The notes under the pieces: model-generated | Told to the model about the DNA's origin: nothing | What the model saw: the letters and a program-made list of their open reading frames with translations, nothing else | Database searches by the model: none | Shown: positions 10,503 through 29,092 of the stretch, one piece after another | Layout of the letters: every line of letters begins with the position of its first letter | Numbering within the stretch: the stretch's first letter is position 1 | NCBI RefSeq assembly: GCF_026686735.1 | Contig: NZ_CP113432.1 | Span: 1,240,001 to 1,304,000 of the forward strand | Length of the DNA stretch: 64,000 nucleotides | From: Pseudomonas triclosanedens | Lineage (GTDB): Bacteria > Pseudomonadota > Gammaproteobacteria > Pseudomonadales > Pseudomonadaceae | Direction of reading: 5' to 3' | Made by a program: the position numbers and the translations under genes

Positions 10503-11403
10503 AATAGTTACCCTTGTGGAGTCCAATCAATGTGCATGGATAGCCAAATAATTTGAATTTAAGCGAATTTTTTTTGGATTCTTTTTAGGCGTGATTTTTC
10601 GGAAAGTCCTAAAACTTCGCTTGAAGCTGCCACTTATTGGTAATGACCGACTGCGATGGCCTCAATCGGCTGTTGGCTGCCAAGGACTCCTAGAGCGAGA
10701 GGCCCTCTGTGATGAGGCTGCTCAGCCGCGAGTTATTTCGCGGCTCGGAAACCTTCGGATTGGAAAGACCCCAGCTCCTTGGGAAACACTCTTCACATCC
10801 TTGTAAGAGCGATTGCTCCTTACATCTTCTGATAAAAGGCAGTCCAAACGAGGTTGCGCTCATACCTTCGCATGGCACATGGCCTCTATAACCGTTTGAT
10901 CCTGCTATGCTGGCCCCTCTCCATAGCCGCCCTGCCTGGAGGGAGCTCAGGAGGAGTCATGTCAGAAACCGTAGGGATATTCCAAGCCTTGGCGTCTGTG
11001 CGTCAAGTTTGCCTGTTGTGGCAACTGGCGAGTCGGTCATGCCGAAGGGGCTCGTGAACGTTTATGGCGTGTACGCCGGGATGTCAATGAGCGAACTGGA
11101 AGGCTACGCCATATCTAAATGGGCGGTTGTCTCATGATCTTCAATCGAAGCTTCCTTCGAAGACGGACACTTGACTCCTCTGTCATCGTCAGCGTCCGAC
11201 GGAATGAGCAGCCACATGGAGGGGGCTTCTGCAAGCCTGATACTGAATGCCAGATCGAGGGCATCGGAGCTCCGTCGGATGACGCTTTGGAGTCTTTCAA
11301 TGGACGCAGGCTGCGTGTGTTTAACTAATTGACGGAGGAAGGGGAACAGATCTAGATATGCCGATAGCTTTTTATTTTTATTCATACTCAGCCTCTTGGT
11401 TCG
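10503..11403. other. non-coding or decayed left end of the island
   Basis: No protein in this 0.9 kb is recognisable. A short frame at 10960-11057 has a good AGGAGG before its ATG (MSETVGIFQAL...) but stops after 32 codons; an overlapping frame continues to 11137 and may be its frameshifted tail. A perfect 8-bp hairpin (AGCCGCGA/TCGCGGCT, loop GTTATT) lies at 10724-10745 and an imperfect one at 10802-10824. A 93-codon minus-strand frame (11104-11385) resembles nothing I know. The region looks like decayed insertion debris. Confidence 0.4.
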
Positions 11404-11466
11404 GATTAAAAAACGTAAGGGGGACGCGCCGACAGGCTCGAAAGGTGATTTCGATCGCCCCTTACG
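11404..11466 (-). terminator. rho-independent terminator of the thiolase-CoA transferase operon
   Basis: ACGTAAGGGG (11412-11421) pairs with CCCCTTACGT (11457-11466). Read on the minus strand the stem is followed by TTTTTTAATCC, a terminator T-run. It lies just after the etf remnant stop codon and closes the minus-strand operon. Confidence 0.78.
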
Positions 11467-11479
11467 TAAACTGGTTTAC

Positions 11480-11869
11480 CTCAGAGAGCGCCCTCGATTG
11501 CAGGAACCGCTTCAAATAGGTCGCTGACCAGGCCGTAGTCGGCGACCTGGAAAATCGGCGCCTCTTCGTCCTTGTTGATTGCAACGATGACCTTGGAGTC
11601 ATGCCTGCCAGGTGCTGGATGGCACGATCGGCCCCCAGAGCGAGCGCGGTACGCAGTTGCTCTTGGGCAGCGCTCGGGCCAACGGAGACTGCAACGATCT
11701 CAGTGGCAACGCCCTTCTCTTTTAGGCGAACGGCTTCTTCCACGGCGATTTCGCAGAAGGGGTTCAAAGCCATTTTGACGTTGCTCAGGTCGACGCCGCT
11801 GCAATCGATATTGACCTTCGCTTTGATGTTCGGATCTAGCACGCGTTTAATTGCCACCAGTGCTTTCAT
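11480..11869 (-). pseudogene. etfB-etfA deletion fusion (electron transfer flavoprotein remnant)
   Basis: Residues 1-84 from ATG 11869 are the N-terminal third of ETF beta: NPFCEIAVEEAVRLKEKGVA and EQLRTALALGADRAI are diagnostic. At the Ala-Ile codons the sequence passes straight into the C-terminus of ETF alpha (IQHLAGM). A 4-base loss then shifts the frame, so the remaining alpha tail (KVIVAINKDEEAPIFQVADY..., ending at TGA 11480-11482) is read only in another frame. The frame-0 product instead ends at 11462. No functional ETF can result. The gene follows the aminotransferase by 1 base, so intact etfBA was once the distal part of this operon and would have accepted electrons from the island flavoproteins. 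Confidence 0.9.
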
Positions 11870-11870
11870 G

Positions 11871-13226
11871 TCATGTTCCTGACTGGCTATTGAGGCTCAG
11901 GACAACATCGTCCAATGCTCTTTCAACTGCGGAGGCAATTGAATCAATTTCAGATAACGTCATTGGAGTCGAGAGAACCAGTAGTCCATAGCTAGCGGCT
12001 ACCACTCCCCGGTTCAGCAACCCCTTCACGAAAATGCTGAGGCGTCTCGCAACTTCTGGGGATTGATAACCAGATCGGTAGTCGGTGACGTCGCTTTCGC
12101 TGAAATGCACCTTGATCAGCGACCCCATGCCAACTGCGCGCCCCGGTAAATGACGTGCTGCGAAGGCGTGGTTGATGGCAAGGCGGAGTGCCTCTCCCAT
12201 TTCCGCAAGGTGTTCATACACAGCAGGAGTAAGCTGCTTGAGTGCAGCGATCCCAGCACACATTGATATGGGGTTTGCAGAGAATGTCCCGCCATGGGGG
12301 AGGGCGGGCTTTCCACATCGAGGGTCAAATACAGCCATCACCTCTTCCTTTCCGCCTACAGCACCTATTGGGAAGCCGCCGCCGATAATTTTTCCCAAGG
12401 CGGTCAAGTGAGGCTGCACATTCCAGATTGCCTGGGCGCCGTGGTAGCCGAGGCGGAAGCTGATGACCTCATCGAAGATCAACAGGCTTCCGTTCTTCTC
12501 ACAAAAATCCGCGAGCCCCTGGATGAACGCCTGACTCGCAGGAATCAGGCCTGCCCGGTTAGGAAGAGGATCCACCAAGATGCCAGCGAGCTCTGACGCA
12601 TGCTGACTCAAGATCTGCAACGAGCGCTCTGGGTCATTAAAAGGAATAGTAATGACGTCCGCCAACACCGCCTCTGGGGTTCCCTCGGCATATGGGACTG
12701 ACGTGGGGGCCGTCATCTCGCCCCAGTTCCCGGGAGAAGAGTCCAGGCTGACCTCAGCGTAATCGTACGAACCGTGGTAGGAACCTTCGACCTTCGCGAT
12801 CTTCGGGCGCTTCGTGAAGGCGCGTGCGGCTTTGATTGCCATCATCACGGCCTCGGTTCCAGAGTTTGTGAATCTAACGCGCTCAATTGAGCACACCCGC
12901 GAGCAGATGAGCTCTGCCAGTTCAATCTCTGCTACGGTCGGCATGCCAAAGGCGGTTCCCCTGGCAAGCTGTTCCTGAACTACCCGGTTGATCTCGGGGT
13001 TGGCGTACCCATGAATGTTCGACGTGAAGTTGTTGACGCAATCAATGCGAATATCACCATCGACATCCCACACGTGGCACCCTTCCCCCTTGCTCGCATA
13101 GAGGGGGTAGGGCTTCATGAATACCGTAGTTCGGGTGTTCCCCCCGGGAAGGCTATTGAGCGCGCGCTGATAGAGCTTGGCGGATGCGGAGTCGCTGTTG
13201 GGATAGCTCATCTGGTGCAGCCTCAT
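11871..13226 (-). CDS. class III aminotransferase, beta-amino acid (GSA-AT-like) type
   Basis: A 451-residue PLP enzyme of the glutamate-1-semialdehyde-aminotransferase-like branch. Conserved features are FTNSGTEA (about 119-126), YHG (150-152), FDEV with the pyridine-nitrogen Asp252, and the Schiff-base Lys279 in LTALGKIIGGG. PGGNTRTTVF near the N-terminus and LIFDEVISFRLGYHG resemble beta-phenylalanine/beta-amino-acid aminotransferases more than HemL, so conversion of a 3-amino acid to a 3-oxo acid is the favoured reaction; this is inference. Its ATG overlaps the stop of the CoA-transferase beta gene (ATGA), indicating coupled translation with the enzymes that would use a 3-oxo acid. Confidence 0.8.
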   Translation of the reverse strand: MRLHQMSYPNSDSASAKLYQRALNSLPGGNTRTTVFMKPYPLYASKGEGCHVWDVDGDIRIDCVNNFTSNIHGYANPEINRVVQEQLARGTAFGMPTVAEIELAELICSRVCSIERVRFTNSGTEAVMMAIKAARAFTKRPKIAKVEGSYHGSYDYAEVSLDSSPGNWGEMTAPTSVPYAEGTPEAVLADVITIPFNDPERSLQILSQHASELAGILVDPLPNRAGLIPASQAFIQGLADFCEKNGSLLIFDEVISFRLGYHGAQAIWNVQPHLTALGKIIGGGFPIGAVGGKEEVMAVFDPRCGKPALPHGGTFSANPISMCAGIAALKQLTPAVYEHLAEMGEALRLAINHAFAARHLPGRAVGMGSLIKVHFSESDVTDYRSGYQSPEVARRLSIFVKGLLNRGVVAASYGLLVLSTPMTLSEIDSIASAVERALDDVVLSLNSQSGT

Positions 13227-28114: not shown

Positions 28115-28132
28115 GTCATTAAGCATTCTCTT

Positions 28133-28164
28133 CGGCAGATGAGGTGGCTATACTTCGTCTGCCG
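28133..28164 (+). repeat. inverted repeat upstream of second IclR gene
   Basis: CGGCAGATGA and TTCGTCTGCCG form a 10-bp stem with one mismatch around an 11-base loop, 17 bases before the second iclR start. It could be an operator or an attenuator. Confidence 0.4.
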
Positions 28165-28180
28165 CAGAGGATGTAGTCGC

Positions 28181-28963
28181 ATGAGTAACGAAAAACCTGA
28201 AAATCCCACCCCTAGTGACGCTTATGCGCAGTCATTTGCGCGCGGTTTGTCTGTGATTTTGGCCTTTGGCCCTAAGCACCCAAAAATGACCTTGTCCGAG
28301 GTTGCAAAATCGACTGGCCTCACGCGTGCCGGCGCAAGAAGGATATTACTTACCCTAGAGTTTCTTGGGTATGTATCTCAAGACGGAAGACTTTTTTCTC
28401 TTACTCCTAAGATCCTAGATCTCGGATACTCTTACCTTTCAGCGAACCCACTTTGGGAATTGGCCACTCCTTATATGGAGGAGGTTGTTCAGCAGACTGG
28501 GGAAACCTGTACAATTTCGGCGCTGGAAGGTACTGATATCGTTTATATTATGCGTGTTGCTACGCATAGAATTATGTCTGTGAATCTATCAATTGGTTCT
28601 CGCCTCCCTGCCTGGGTCACTTCAATGGGGCGCGTACTACTTGGTGGGGTAGTCGAATCTGTGCGGGACGATATTCTTTCGAAAAGCAATATCATTAAGT
28701 ATACATCTAGAACCATTACGGACATTGATACTTTGAAGGGTGTGATTGCTCTTGCTAAGCAACGAGGCTATTGCCTGGTTAGCGAAGAGCTTGAGGAAGG
28801 CCTTCAATCAATTGCGGTACCAATCACAGACCGCTCTGGCAGGATCATTGCTGCAATGAACGTTGGTGGACAATCGTCGCGAACCACCGGGGCCGATCTA
28901 GTTGAGAGAGTTCTTCCGCATCTCCAAGAGGCTGCATTCAAGATTAGCCAATCTTTGTCGTAG
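28181..28963 (+). CDS. IclR-family transcriptional regulator (second, PcaR/PobR-like subgroup)
   Basis: A 260-residue IclR protein: HTH about 35-80 (EVAKSTGLTRAGARRILLTLE) and an effector domain with LPAWVTSMGRVLLGG and EELEEGLQSIAVPI. These are hallmarks of the PcaR/PcaU/CatR-type subgroup that controls beta-ketoadipate genes. That fits regulation of the PcaIJF-like operon. Start 28181 is chosen for the nearby AGAGGATG Shine-Dalgarno. Confidence 0.85.
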   Translation: MSNEKPENPTPSDAYAQSFARGLSVILAFGPKHPKMTLSEVAKSTGLTRAGARRILLTLEFLGYVSQDGRLFSLTPKILDLGYSYLSANPLWELATPYMEEVVQQTGETCTISALEGTDIVYIMRVATHRIMSVNLSIGSRLPAWVTSMGRVLLGGVVESVRDDILSKSNIIKYTSRTITDIDTLKGVIALAKQRGYCLVSEELEEGLQSIAVPITDRSGRIIAAMNVGGQSSRTTGADLVERVLPHLQEAAFKISQSLS

Positions 28964-29092
28964 TCGTTTGGTATGTCTAGCTACTCAAGGCGGAAAGACG
29001 GGGACGGTGGTCATTTATCTCTAATTCGGTATGAACCAAAACTGGTCTGTCCTGGAACCGGTGGACAGGTAGTTAAGAGCTACTGCTCGCAT

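What the first reader, a model, noticed from the sequence alone, without database searches (positions are those of the whole stretch)
10503..29092. Island encoding a probable new route from an amine or beta-amino acid to acetyl-CoA
Seen: a polyamine-type importer, two class III aminotransferases (one beta-amino-acid-like, one omega-type), an aldehyde dehydrogenase, two amine-oxidising flavoproteins, a PcaIJ-like CoA-transferase, a PcaF-like thiolase, a cupin and two IclR regulators. Known: PcaIJF convert 3-oxoadipate to succinyl-CoA and acetyl-CoA, and GSA-like beta-aminotransferases make 3-oxo acids. Inference: a substrate such as beta-lysine or an N-methylated relative could be transaminated at the omega end, oxidised to 3-aminoadipate, transaminated to 3-oxoadipate, then activated and cleaved. 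No acyl-CoA dehydrogenase or hydratase is present, so the 3-oxo group must come from transamination or oxidation.
Basis: partly seen in the sequence, partly recalled or inferred. Interest (0 to 1): 0.88.

Follow-up and report, generated by a model that had tools for sequence, protein, structure and literature searches.

The report
Imported island degrading a beta-amino acid
A foreign DNA island sitting inside a host gene carries what looks like a complete, not yet described way to import an unusual amino acid and break it down to acetyl-CoA; related gene sets in other bacteria support this, but its exact food molecule is unknown.

Summary
Window 10505-29109 is an 18.6-kb GC-poor insertion inside pncB; its aminotransferase AT1 is absent from 24 genus relatives. 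It encodes all the enzyme classes listed.

Importer, DAO-type oxidase, IclR regulator, ALDH, histamine-dehydrogenase-like flavoprotein (OYE) and GSA-like aminotransferase (AT1) recur in fixed order in 10 of 11 loci of one unnamed, probably rhizobial family; the 11th ends at a contig edge. There AT1 is followed by RidA and a beta-keto-acid cleavage enzyme (BKACE). The window has a PcaIJ-type CoA-transferase plus PcaF-type thiolase instead: another way to do the same step. So AT1 most likely makes a beta-keto acid from a beta-amino acid; 3-aminoadipate to 3-oxoadipate is favoured.

Corrections: the binding protein resembles GABA binders; OYE's subclade lacks the Tyr/His pair and the Asp of known relatives; AT2 need not be omega-specific; the genome has no lysine 2,3-aminomutase family gene. 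Beta-lysine is possible, unproven. Closest known analogue of the front end: the Hno-Pno-Rid-Ald segment of the hybrid nicotine pathway.

New variant of a known kind; interest 0.55.

The parts
9977..10504 (+). left part of pncB (nicotinate phosphoribosyltransferase): stop codon, 330-bp deletion, ends at the island
10505..11461 (.). left end of island, no ORF of note; no plasmid match
11462..11869 (-). etfB'-'etfA remnant (EtfB residues ~1-84, then an EtfA-like C-terminus in another frame; the EtfA reading is recalled)
   Evidence: PF01012 E 2e-12; frames; 81% over 84 aa to EtfB of L139; DNA pieces match etfB and etfA/FixB genes
11871..13226 (-). AT1: GSA-like class III aminotransferase, proposed beta-aminotransferase
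   Evidence: closest solved chain 6k8h 465 bits; VpAT Arg41 equivalent R32
13223..13888 (-). CoaB: 3-oxoacid CoA-transferase subunit B (PcaJ-type)
   Evidence: TIGR02428 286.6 bits, cut-off 243.55; 67% to CoaB beside pcaF in L116
13864..14538 (-). CoaA: 3-oxoacid CoA-transferase subunit A (PcaI-type)
   Evidence: TIGR02429 373.2 bits, cut-off 128.5; 70.5% to CoaA beside pcaF in L116
14548..15750 (-). thiolase, PcaF-type (3-oxoadipyl-CoA thiolase)
   Evidence: TIGR02430 equivalog 663.4 bits, cut-off 597; closest solved 6pca beta-ketoadipyl-CoA thiolase
16127..17620 (+). aldehyde dehydrogenase (PuuC-like, below that family's cut-off)
   Evidence: 73-75% to the operon ALDHs
17708..19771 (+). OYE: TMADH/histamine-dehydrogenase-like iron-sulphur flavoprotein
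19885..21051 (+). ABC importer ATPase (PotA-type)
   Evidence: TIGR01187 391.7 bits, cut-off 355.6
21080..22120 (+). substrate-binding protein, GABA-binder-like
   Evidence: 9d57, 4eq7, 6dgv are the closest solved; Arg/Asp conserved 13 of 13
22173..23408 (+). ABC importer permease (PotB-type)
   Evidence: PF00528
23303..24205 (+). ABC importer permease (PotC-type; true start probably downstream)
   Evidence: PF00528
24222..25544 (+). DAO-family FAD amine oxidoreductase (weakly like L-pipecolate oxidase)
   Evidence: PF01266; NF050086 143 bits, cut-off 600
25528..26373 (+). IclR regulator 1 (its relative lies inside the conserved operon)
26398..27723 (+). AT2: class III aminotransferase (PRK07483 family)
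   Evidence: NF005685 637.7 bits, cut-off 485
27749..28114 (+). EutQ-like cupin
   Evidence: PF06249
28139..28963 (+). IclR regulator 2
29043..29109 (-). 67-bp remnant of an IS3-family element, reaching exactly to the junction
   Evidence: 95.5% to a Pseudomonas nitroreducens plasmid, match overlaps the end of an IS3-family transposase gene
29110..29444 (+). right part of pncB
   Evidence: PF04095

Best explanation
The island encodes uptake and complete catabolism of a beta-amino acid that also carries a second, more distal amine. Proposed order: (1) PotABCD-type importer with a GABA-type binding protein takes up the zwitterion. (2) The distal CH2-NHR is oxidised by the OYE flavoprotein (electrons probably to ETF) and/or the DAO-type enzyme, giving a semialdehyde, which ALDH converts to a carboxylate. 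(3) AT1 transaminates the 3-amino group of the resulting 3-aminodicarboxylate, most likely 3-aminoadipate. (4) The 3-oxo acid, most likely 3-oxoadipate, is activated by the PcaIJ-type CoA-transferase. (5) The PcaF-type thiolase cleaves it to succinyl-CoA and acetyl-CoA. Two IclR proteins regulate. Shown: gene content, homology, conserved operon order, and that a beta-keto-acid cleavage enzyme fills the place of steps 4-5 in relatives. Inferred: every reaction, the order, the C6 skeleton, and the imported compound. AT2 and the cupin are accessory in this scheme, their roles unknown.
For: Operon PotA-PotD-PotB-PotC-DAO-IclR-ALDH-OYE-AT1-RidA-BKACE in 10 of 11 loci of one unnamed family, the 11th cut by its contig end; a Phyllobacterium plasmid has it up to RidA. 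BKACE also lies in 7 of 46 other AT1-family loci, against 0.1-0.7 expected from densities that I estimated. CoaA-CoaB-AT1 and a facing thiolase in a Planctomycetes contig. PcaF equivalog met; CoaA 70.5% to the CoaA beside pcaF, about 3 kb from a chlorocatechol dioxygenase gene. AT1 keeps the beta-carboxylate Arg of VpAT, 12 of 12. The operon BKACEs keep the Arg (BsfD Arg91) placed near the distal phosphonate in BsfD, 10 of 10, and have Leu at the place of Kce Glu14 (Kce numbering recalled), which fits an anionic far end. SBP closest to GABA binders. No acyl-CoA dehydrogenase or hydratase among the 16 classified island genes.
Against: Window AT1 lies outside the operon AT1 clade (50-55% identity; that clade 100/100) and nearer to AT1s that sit with other ALDH/DAO/transporter sets, so the window cluster is a mosaic and its substrate may differ from the relatives' one. 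Thiolases of the PcaF family also serve phenylacetate and dicarboxylate routes (recalled). The ETF remnant is most like ETF of an operon with enoyl-CoA hydratase, hydroxyacyl-CoA dehydrogenase, thiolase and CaiB-type transferase, so it may not be OYE's partner. Arg91 is shared by BKACEs in other contexts, so it is not diagnostic of 3-oxoadipate, and the operon BKACEs have Phe for the catalytic Tyr, as BsfD, which does other chemistry. The host has two BKACE genes elsewhere, unlinked to the island. RidA, present in 10 of 11 relatives, is not in the window.
Confidence: 0.6

Rival explanations
1. AT1 works on CoA thioesters: the CoA-transferase first loads the beta-amino acid, AT1 then makes the 3-oxoacyl-CoA, and the thiolase follows directly (as Kat does in the variant lysine fermentation).
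For: Kat is also a HemL-like class III enzyme, acts only on thioesters and is co-localised with a thiolase gene in one organism (PMC3149608, passages). AT1 lies in one gene row with CoA-transferase and thiolase.
Against: In the 10 operons AT1 is followed by RidA and BKACE; BKACEs take a free beta-keto acid plus acetyl-CoA (reaction as described in PMC12871164). The carboxylate-binding Arg is kept.
Confidence: 0.12
2. The island degrades a polyamine or omega-amino acid (putrescine, GABA, 5-aminovalerate type): importer, OYE, DAO, ALDH and AT2 form one route, while thiolase/CoA-transferase/AT1 is an unrelated captured module.
For: SBP is GABA-binder-like; ALDH is PuuC-like; the two modules are divergently transcribed and AT1 is phylogenetically separate from the operon AT1s.
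Against: In 10 of 11 related loci the importer, DAO, ALDH and OYE genes are in the same gene row as AT1 and BKACE, tying a beta-keto-acid step to them; no such step is needed for GABA or putrescine.
Confidence: 0.18
3. The 3-oxo acid is not a C6 dicarboxylate: for example 3-oxopimelate, 3-oxoglutarate or a branched acid, from a piperidine- or bicyclic-alkaloid-type beta-amino acid, cleaved to another acyl-CoA.
For: PcaF-family enzymes include PaaJ-type members (own-genome copy L002, 65%; PaaJ by my reading of its neighbours); BsfD-type BKACEs occur in varied contexts.
Against: Closest solved thiolase is a beta-ketoadipyl-CoA thiolase, and the best plasmid matches are annotated pcaF or lie beside pcaF (CoaA matches are annotated only as 3-oxoacid CoA-transferase or not at all).
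Confidence: 0.25

Closest known systems
Hybrid nicotine pathway, Hno-Pno-Rid-Ald segment (Agrobacterium tumefaciens S33)
   Same: An amine oxidase (Hno), a histamine-dehydrogenase-like FMN/[4Fe-4S] enzyme (Pno), a Rid protein, an aldehyde dehydrogenase and genes annotated as putrescine/spermidine ABC transporters are clustered; Pno gives its electrons to ETF (PMC7688666, PMC5500553, passages).
   Different: Here the second flavoenzyme is DAO-type, OYE lacks the Tyr/His pair seen in 6l6j (which I take to be a Pno), no pyridine enzymes are present, and a beta-aminotransferase plus beta-keto-acid cleavage follow. RidA is in the relatives, not in the window.
Lower beta-ketoadipate pathway (PcaIJF)
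   Same: CoA-transferase and thiolase of the same families.
   Different: No ring-cleavage enzyme among the 16 classified island genes; the 3-oxo acid would come from transamination. Another own-genome thiolase of this family (L003, 63%) has a different CoA-transferase type beside it (CatIJ reading recalled).
Anaerobic lysine fermentation (KamA-KamDE-Kdd-Kce/Kat)
   Same: Beta-lysine-derived beta-keto acid cleaved by a BKACE; HemL-like transaminase in the Kat variant (PMC3149608, passages).
   Different: No KamA-family gene in the genome; no KamDE or Kdd among the 16 classified island genes; oxidative amine removal.
Beta-phenylalanine / beta-aminotransferases (VpAT 4ao9, MesAT 2yku, 6k8h)
   Same: AT1 is closest to 6k8h and keeps VpAT Arg41.
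   Different: The second-carboxylate Arg398 of VpAT is Tyr in the window, Asn in the relatives.
Pseudomonas beta-lysine route via N6-acetyl-beta-lysine (recalled, not read)
   Same: Beta-lysine to a 3-oxo acid, then cleavage.
   Different: No match in the window to the acetyltransferase and HDAC-like proteins of L070, the only ones tried.

Membership tests
PcaF 3-oxoadipyl-CoA thiolase | curated equivalog score TIGR02430 | tested here: met
   663.4 bits against 597
PcaF 3-oxoadipyl-CoA thiolase | activity on 3-oxoadipyl-CoA | not testable with these tools
   needs an assay
PcaIJ-type CoA-transferase | subfamily scores TIGR02428/TIGR02429 | tested here: met
   286.6/243.55 and 373.2/128.5 bits; by their names these models also cover ScoAB
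Beta-ketoadipate pathway as a whole | aromatic ring-cleavage genes in the same unit | tested here: not met
   none among the 16 classified island genes
TMADH/histamine dehydrogenase family | Oxidored_FMN plus pyridine-nucleotide fold, [4Fe-4S] Cys motif, Cys30 for covalent FMN | tested here: met
TMADH/histamine dehydrogenase family | Tyr169-x-x-His172 pair (numbers recalled) | tested here: not met
   Asp..Phe in 13 of 13 of this subclade; kept in 4 of 4 solved relatives shown aligned and in 6 of 6 homologues at 50-55%
Histamine dehydrogenase | Asp358 in the pocket (number and role recalled; the paper was not held) | tested here: not met
   His in 13 of 13
Beta-aminotransferase (VpAT type) | Arg41 for the beta-amino acid carboxylate (role recalled) | tested here: met
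   R32, 12 of 12
Beta-aminotransferase (VpAT type) | Arg398 (role recalled) | tested here: not met
   Tyr in the window, Asn in 11 relatives
Glutamate-1-semialdehyde aminomutase | curated scores TIGR00713 / NF000818 | tested here: not met
   345.4/527.3 and 350.4/398 bits
GABA-type binding protein | closest solved relatives; Arg203/Asp226 of Atu4243 (recalled) | tested here: met
   222, 217 and 214 bits to 9d57, 4eq7, 6dgv against 163 (8jv1) and 44 (1pot) to spermidine/putrescine binders; residues 13 of 13
GABA-type binding protein | ligand binding | not testable with these tools
   needs thermal shift or ITC
Beta-keto-acid cleavage (BKACE) route | a PF05853 gene in the cluster | tested here: not met
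   no BKACE match in the window; present in 10 of 11 relatives (5 of these 10 confirmed by Pfam)

The most novel reading that the evidence does not exclude
The eleven-gene operon and the island are two versions of an undescribed pathway for cyclic or N-alkylated beta-amino acids (for example N-methylated beta-homoproline or an omega-N-methyl-beta-lysine). One enzyme serves each amine state: a TMADH-fold enzyme of a new active-site class for the tertiary or N-methyl amine, a DAO-type enzyme for the secondary amine, and a PLP enzyme for the primary beta-amine. All converge on 3-aminoadipate and 3-oxoadipate, with BKACE and PcaIJF as interchangeable last steps.
Probability: 0.25. Interest if true: 0.75.

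Novelty: new variant of a known kind. Interest (0 to 1): 0.55.

Why it matters
If right, it gives beta-amino acids with a second amine an aerobic route into central metabolism without beta-oxidation. It joins amine-oxidation chemistry known from nicotine catabolism to the end of the beta-ketoadipate pathway. It shows two unrelated cleavage systems (BKACE; PcaIJF) swapped behind the same aminotransferase family, which would be a practical rule for annotating GSA-like aminotransferases as beta-aminotransferases. It also defines a subclass of trimethylamine/histamine-dehydrogenase-like enzymes with a changed active site, a clear biochemical target.

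Tried and rejected
Histamine or trimethylamine as OYE substrate: rejected as most likely because the pocket Asp and the Tyr/His pair are replaced in all 13 subclade members aligned. Polyamine importer: downgraded, because the binding protein is GABA-binder-like. KamA link to beta-lysine: a Rhizobium plasmid has KamA a few kb from a DAO homologue (50%), an ALDH and an AT2-like enzyme, but another KamA plasmid has a polyketide synthase there, neither of the two other KamA loci has the DAO, and the own genome has no KamA-family gene, so it is not counted as support. 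ETF as proof of OYE's electron acceptor: not claimed, since the remnant resembles ETF of a beta-oxidation-type operon. BKACE Arg91 as proof of 3-oxoadipate: not claimed. No structure prediction was run; I judged that it would not name the substrate. Literature, all searches of one open-licence library: no paper held both 3-oxoadipate and beta-lysine, none held 3-aminoadipate or the two synonyms searched, none held histamine dehydrogenase, aminotransferase and polyamine together or the three terms; a search for three of five pathway terms gave two papers. Of the papers I saw passages only, none whole.

Dropped before counting: of 54 loci (L008-L053) were counted and the 8 others (L054-L061, 24-30% identity) were not, tblastn pieces covering under 35% of the query, AT1 rows covering under 85% or under 38% identity; the row 'window_BKACE' is the G877 reference itself and was not counted twice. 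Three of the seven BKACE-bearing loci in the 46 are one clade, so they are not independent; the expected number rests on gene counts and genome sizes that I put in by hand.

Full report
OBSERVATION. The genes reported are present as open frames and the families of 16 island genes are as stated. The window lies in a 6.25-Mb genome held as one contig. Compared with three genus relatives, the island occupies 10505-29109: the left flank aligns to 10504 apart from a 330-bp deletion inside pncB, the right flank begins at 29110, and 23 bp of pncB are missing between them. 24 of 24 genus relatives have a full-length NAPRTase match; this genome has only the two pieces. GC drops to 0.48-0.58. The right end is a 67-bp match to the end region of an IS3-family transposase gene. 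AT1 has no match in the 24 other genus genomes at E<=1e-90 and matches in 2 of 398 family genomes, including this one, at E<=1e-110. It is therefore most likely acquired DNA.

MODULES. On the minus strand: thiolase, CoaA, CoaB, AT1 and an etfB'-'etfA remnant whose start lies just after the AT1 stop. On the plus strand: ALDH, OYE, PotA, PotD, PotB, PotC, DAO, IclR1, then AT2, cupin, IclR2. RidA and BKACE of G877, and KamA, GNAT, HDAC-like and HAD proteins of L070, have no match in the window at E<=1e-3.

CONSERVED OPERON. Searching 394 genomes of one family and 146 of one genus in it for the OYE protein (E<=1e-280) gave 5 and 7 genomes, 11 distinct. All 11 neighbourhoods were fetched. In 10 of 11 the order is PotA-PotD-PotB-PotC-DAO-IclR-ALDH-OYE-AT1-RidA-BKACE; in the 11th the contig ends after OYE (in one locus PotA matches in two pieces). 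Identities to the window: OYE 70-73%, ALDH 73-75%, AT1 52-55%, DAO 54-56%, PotD 58-60%. Five of the ten BKACEs were checked by Pfam: PF05853, E 8e-87 to 8e-93. A Phyllobacterium zundukense plasmid has the same order up to RidA and no BKACE hit in the 38 kb read.

WHY THIS POINTS TO A BETA-KETO ACID. BKACEs take a beta-keto acid and acetyl-CoA to acetoacetate and the shortened CoA ester (PMC12871164, passages; PMC4922564, passages). In the window that place is taken by a CoA-transferase and thiolase that give the equivalent net result. Among 46 other AT1-family loci (of 54), 7 carry a BKACE hit within the DNA held; densities estimated from 200 Pseudomonadota genomes (48 with a BKACE) predict 0.1-0.7 (three of the seven are one clade). 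One Planctomycetes contig has CoaA-CoaB-AT1 and a facing thiolase. A Rhizobium plasmid has an amino-acid importer, a DAO-family enzyme, CoaA, CoaB and pcaF in a row, with a thiolase 67.6% identical to the window's.

WHICH BETA-KETO ACID. The thiolase passes the pcaF equivalog cut-off (663.4/597 bits); its closest solved relative is a beta-ketoadipyl-CoA thiolase (549 bits); CoaA and CoaB are 70.5% and 67% identical to the pair beside pcaF, about 3 kb from a chlorocatechol dioxygenase gene. The own genome's only other match for CoaA is 46% identical. The operon BKACEs have Leu where Kce has Glu14 (numbering recalled) and an Arg (BsfD Arg91, near the phosphonate in BsfD) in 10 of 10, but that Arg is shared with BKACEs elsewhere, one of them encoded near a maleylacetate reductase. 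BsfD itself does not do the usual cleavage and has Phe for the catalytic Tyr; the operon BKACEs also have Phe there (10 of 10), so even their reaction needs an assay. So 3-oxoadipate is favoured, not proven.

AT1. It is below the GSA aminomutase cut-offs; closest solved is 6k8h (465 bits), then ForI, GSAM and VpAT. VpAT Arg41 is kept, Arg398 is not (residue roles recalled). In a tree of 56 rows window AT1 groups loosely (85/68) with AT1s of other transporter/ALDH/DAO clusters, outside the operon clade (100/100). The window cluster is thus a mosaic.

FRONT END. OYE is closest to histamine dehydrogenase (718 bits), then 6de6, 6l6j and TMADH. It keeps the FMN-binding Cys and the [4Fe-4S] cysteines, but the Tyr..His pair of the family is Asp..Phe and histamine dehydrogenase Asp358 is His in 13 of 13 members of this subclade; 6 of 6 homologues at 50-55% keep the pair and 5 of 6 the Asp (residue numbers recalled). 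The nearest characterised analogue is Pno of the hybrid nicotine pathway, which releases methylamine from a CH2-NHCH3 group, passes electrons to ETF, and is clustered with a Rid protein, an aldehyde dehydrogenase and genes annotated as putrescine/spermidine ABC transporters (PMC7688666 and PMC5500553, passages). I take 6l6j to be a Pno (inference: it lacks the FMN-binding Cys, as the review describes). The binding protein is closest to GABA binders, with the Arg and Asp that I recall as GABA ligands of Atu4243 conserved 13 of 13. DAO is only weakly like L-pipecolate oxidase (143/600 bits).

SUBSTRATE. A zwitterion with a beta-amine and a distal amine fits. Beta-lysine is one case; cyclic or N-methyl beta-amino acids would explain better why OYE and DAO occur together in all 11 loci and the Phyllobacterium plasmid. 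No KamA-family gene is in the genome. No formaldehyde-handling gene is among the 16 classified genes, which argues mildly against plain N-demethylation.

AGAINST. AT1's separate phylogeny, the mosaic layout, the ETF remnant's resemblance to a beta-oxidation-type operon (81% over 84 aa to L139), the Phe in the BKACEs, two unlinked BKACEs in the host, the lack of RidA in the window, and no experiment. AT2-like genes have a BKACE within 1 kb in 2 of 5 loci viewed, so AT2 may itself be a beta-aminotransferase.

VERDICT. Observation confirmed; interpretation partly supported: the transamination-activation-cleavage core is well supported by comparative genomics, the imported compound is open.

Noticed in passing
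9977-10504 and 29110-29444: pncB is split by the island and no other NAPRTase-family match was found in the genome, although 24 of 24 genus relatives have a full-length match; nicotinate salvage by this enzyme appears lost.
   Followed up: yes
11462-11869: Remnant of an etfB-etfA pair fused by an internal deletion, 81% over 84 aa to EtfB of a beta-oxidation-type operon on a Pseudomonas kurunegalensis plasmid (L139).
   Followed up: partly
31084-32973 and 33332-35227: Two adjacent methyl-accepting chemotaxis proteins (dCache sensor found in the first) 80% identical: probably a tandem duplication beside the island.
   Followed up: partly
L117:738-6206: Amino-acid ABC importer, DAO-family oxidase, CoaA, CoaB and pcaF in one row on a Rhizobium plasmid: perhaps another amino-acid route into 3-oxoadipate.
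   Followed up: partly
L137, L138, L136: AT2-like aminotransferase in a recurring set with a MurR/RpiR regulator, an amino-acid ABC importer and (L137, L138) a C45 peptidase; BKACE within 1 kb in L137.
   Followed up: no
L070:6019-20941: KamA-family aminomutase with ALDH, DAO, AT2-like enzyme, GNAT and HDAC-like protein on a Rhizobium plasmid; a relative of this KamA sits near a polyketide synthase (L121).
   Followed up: partly
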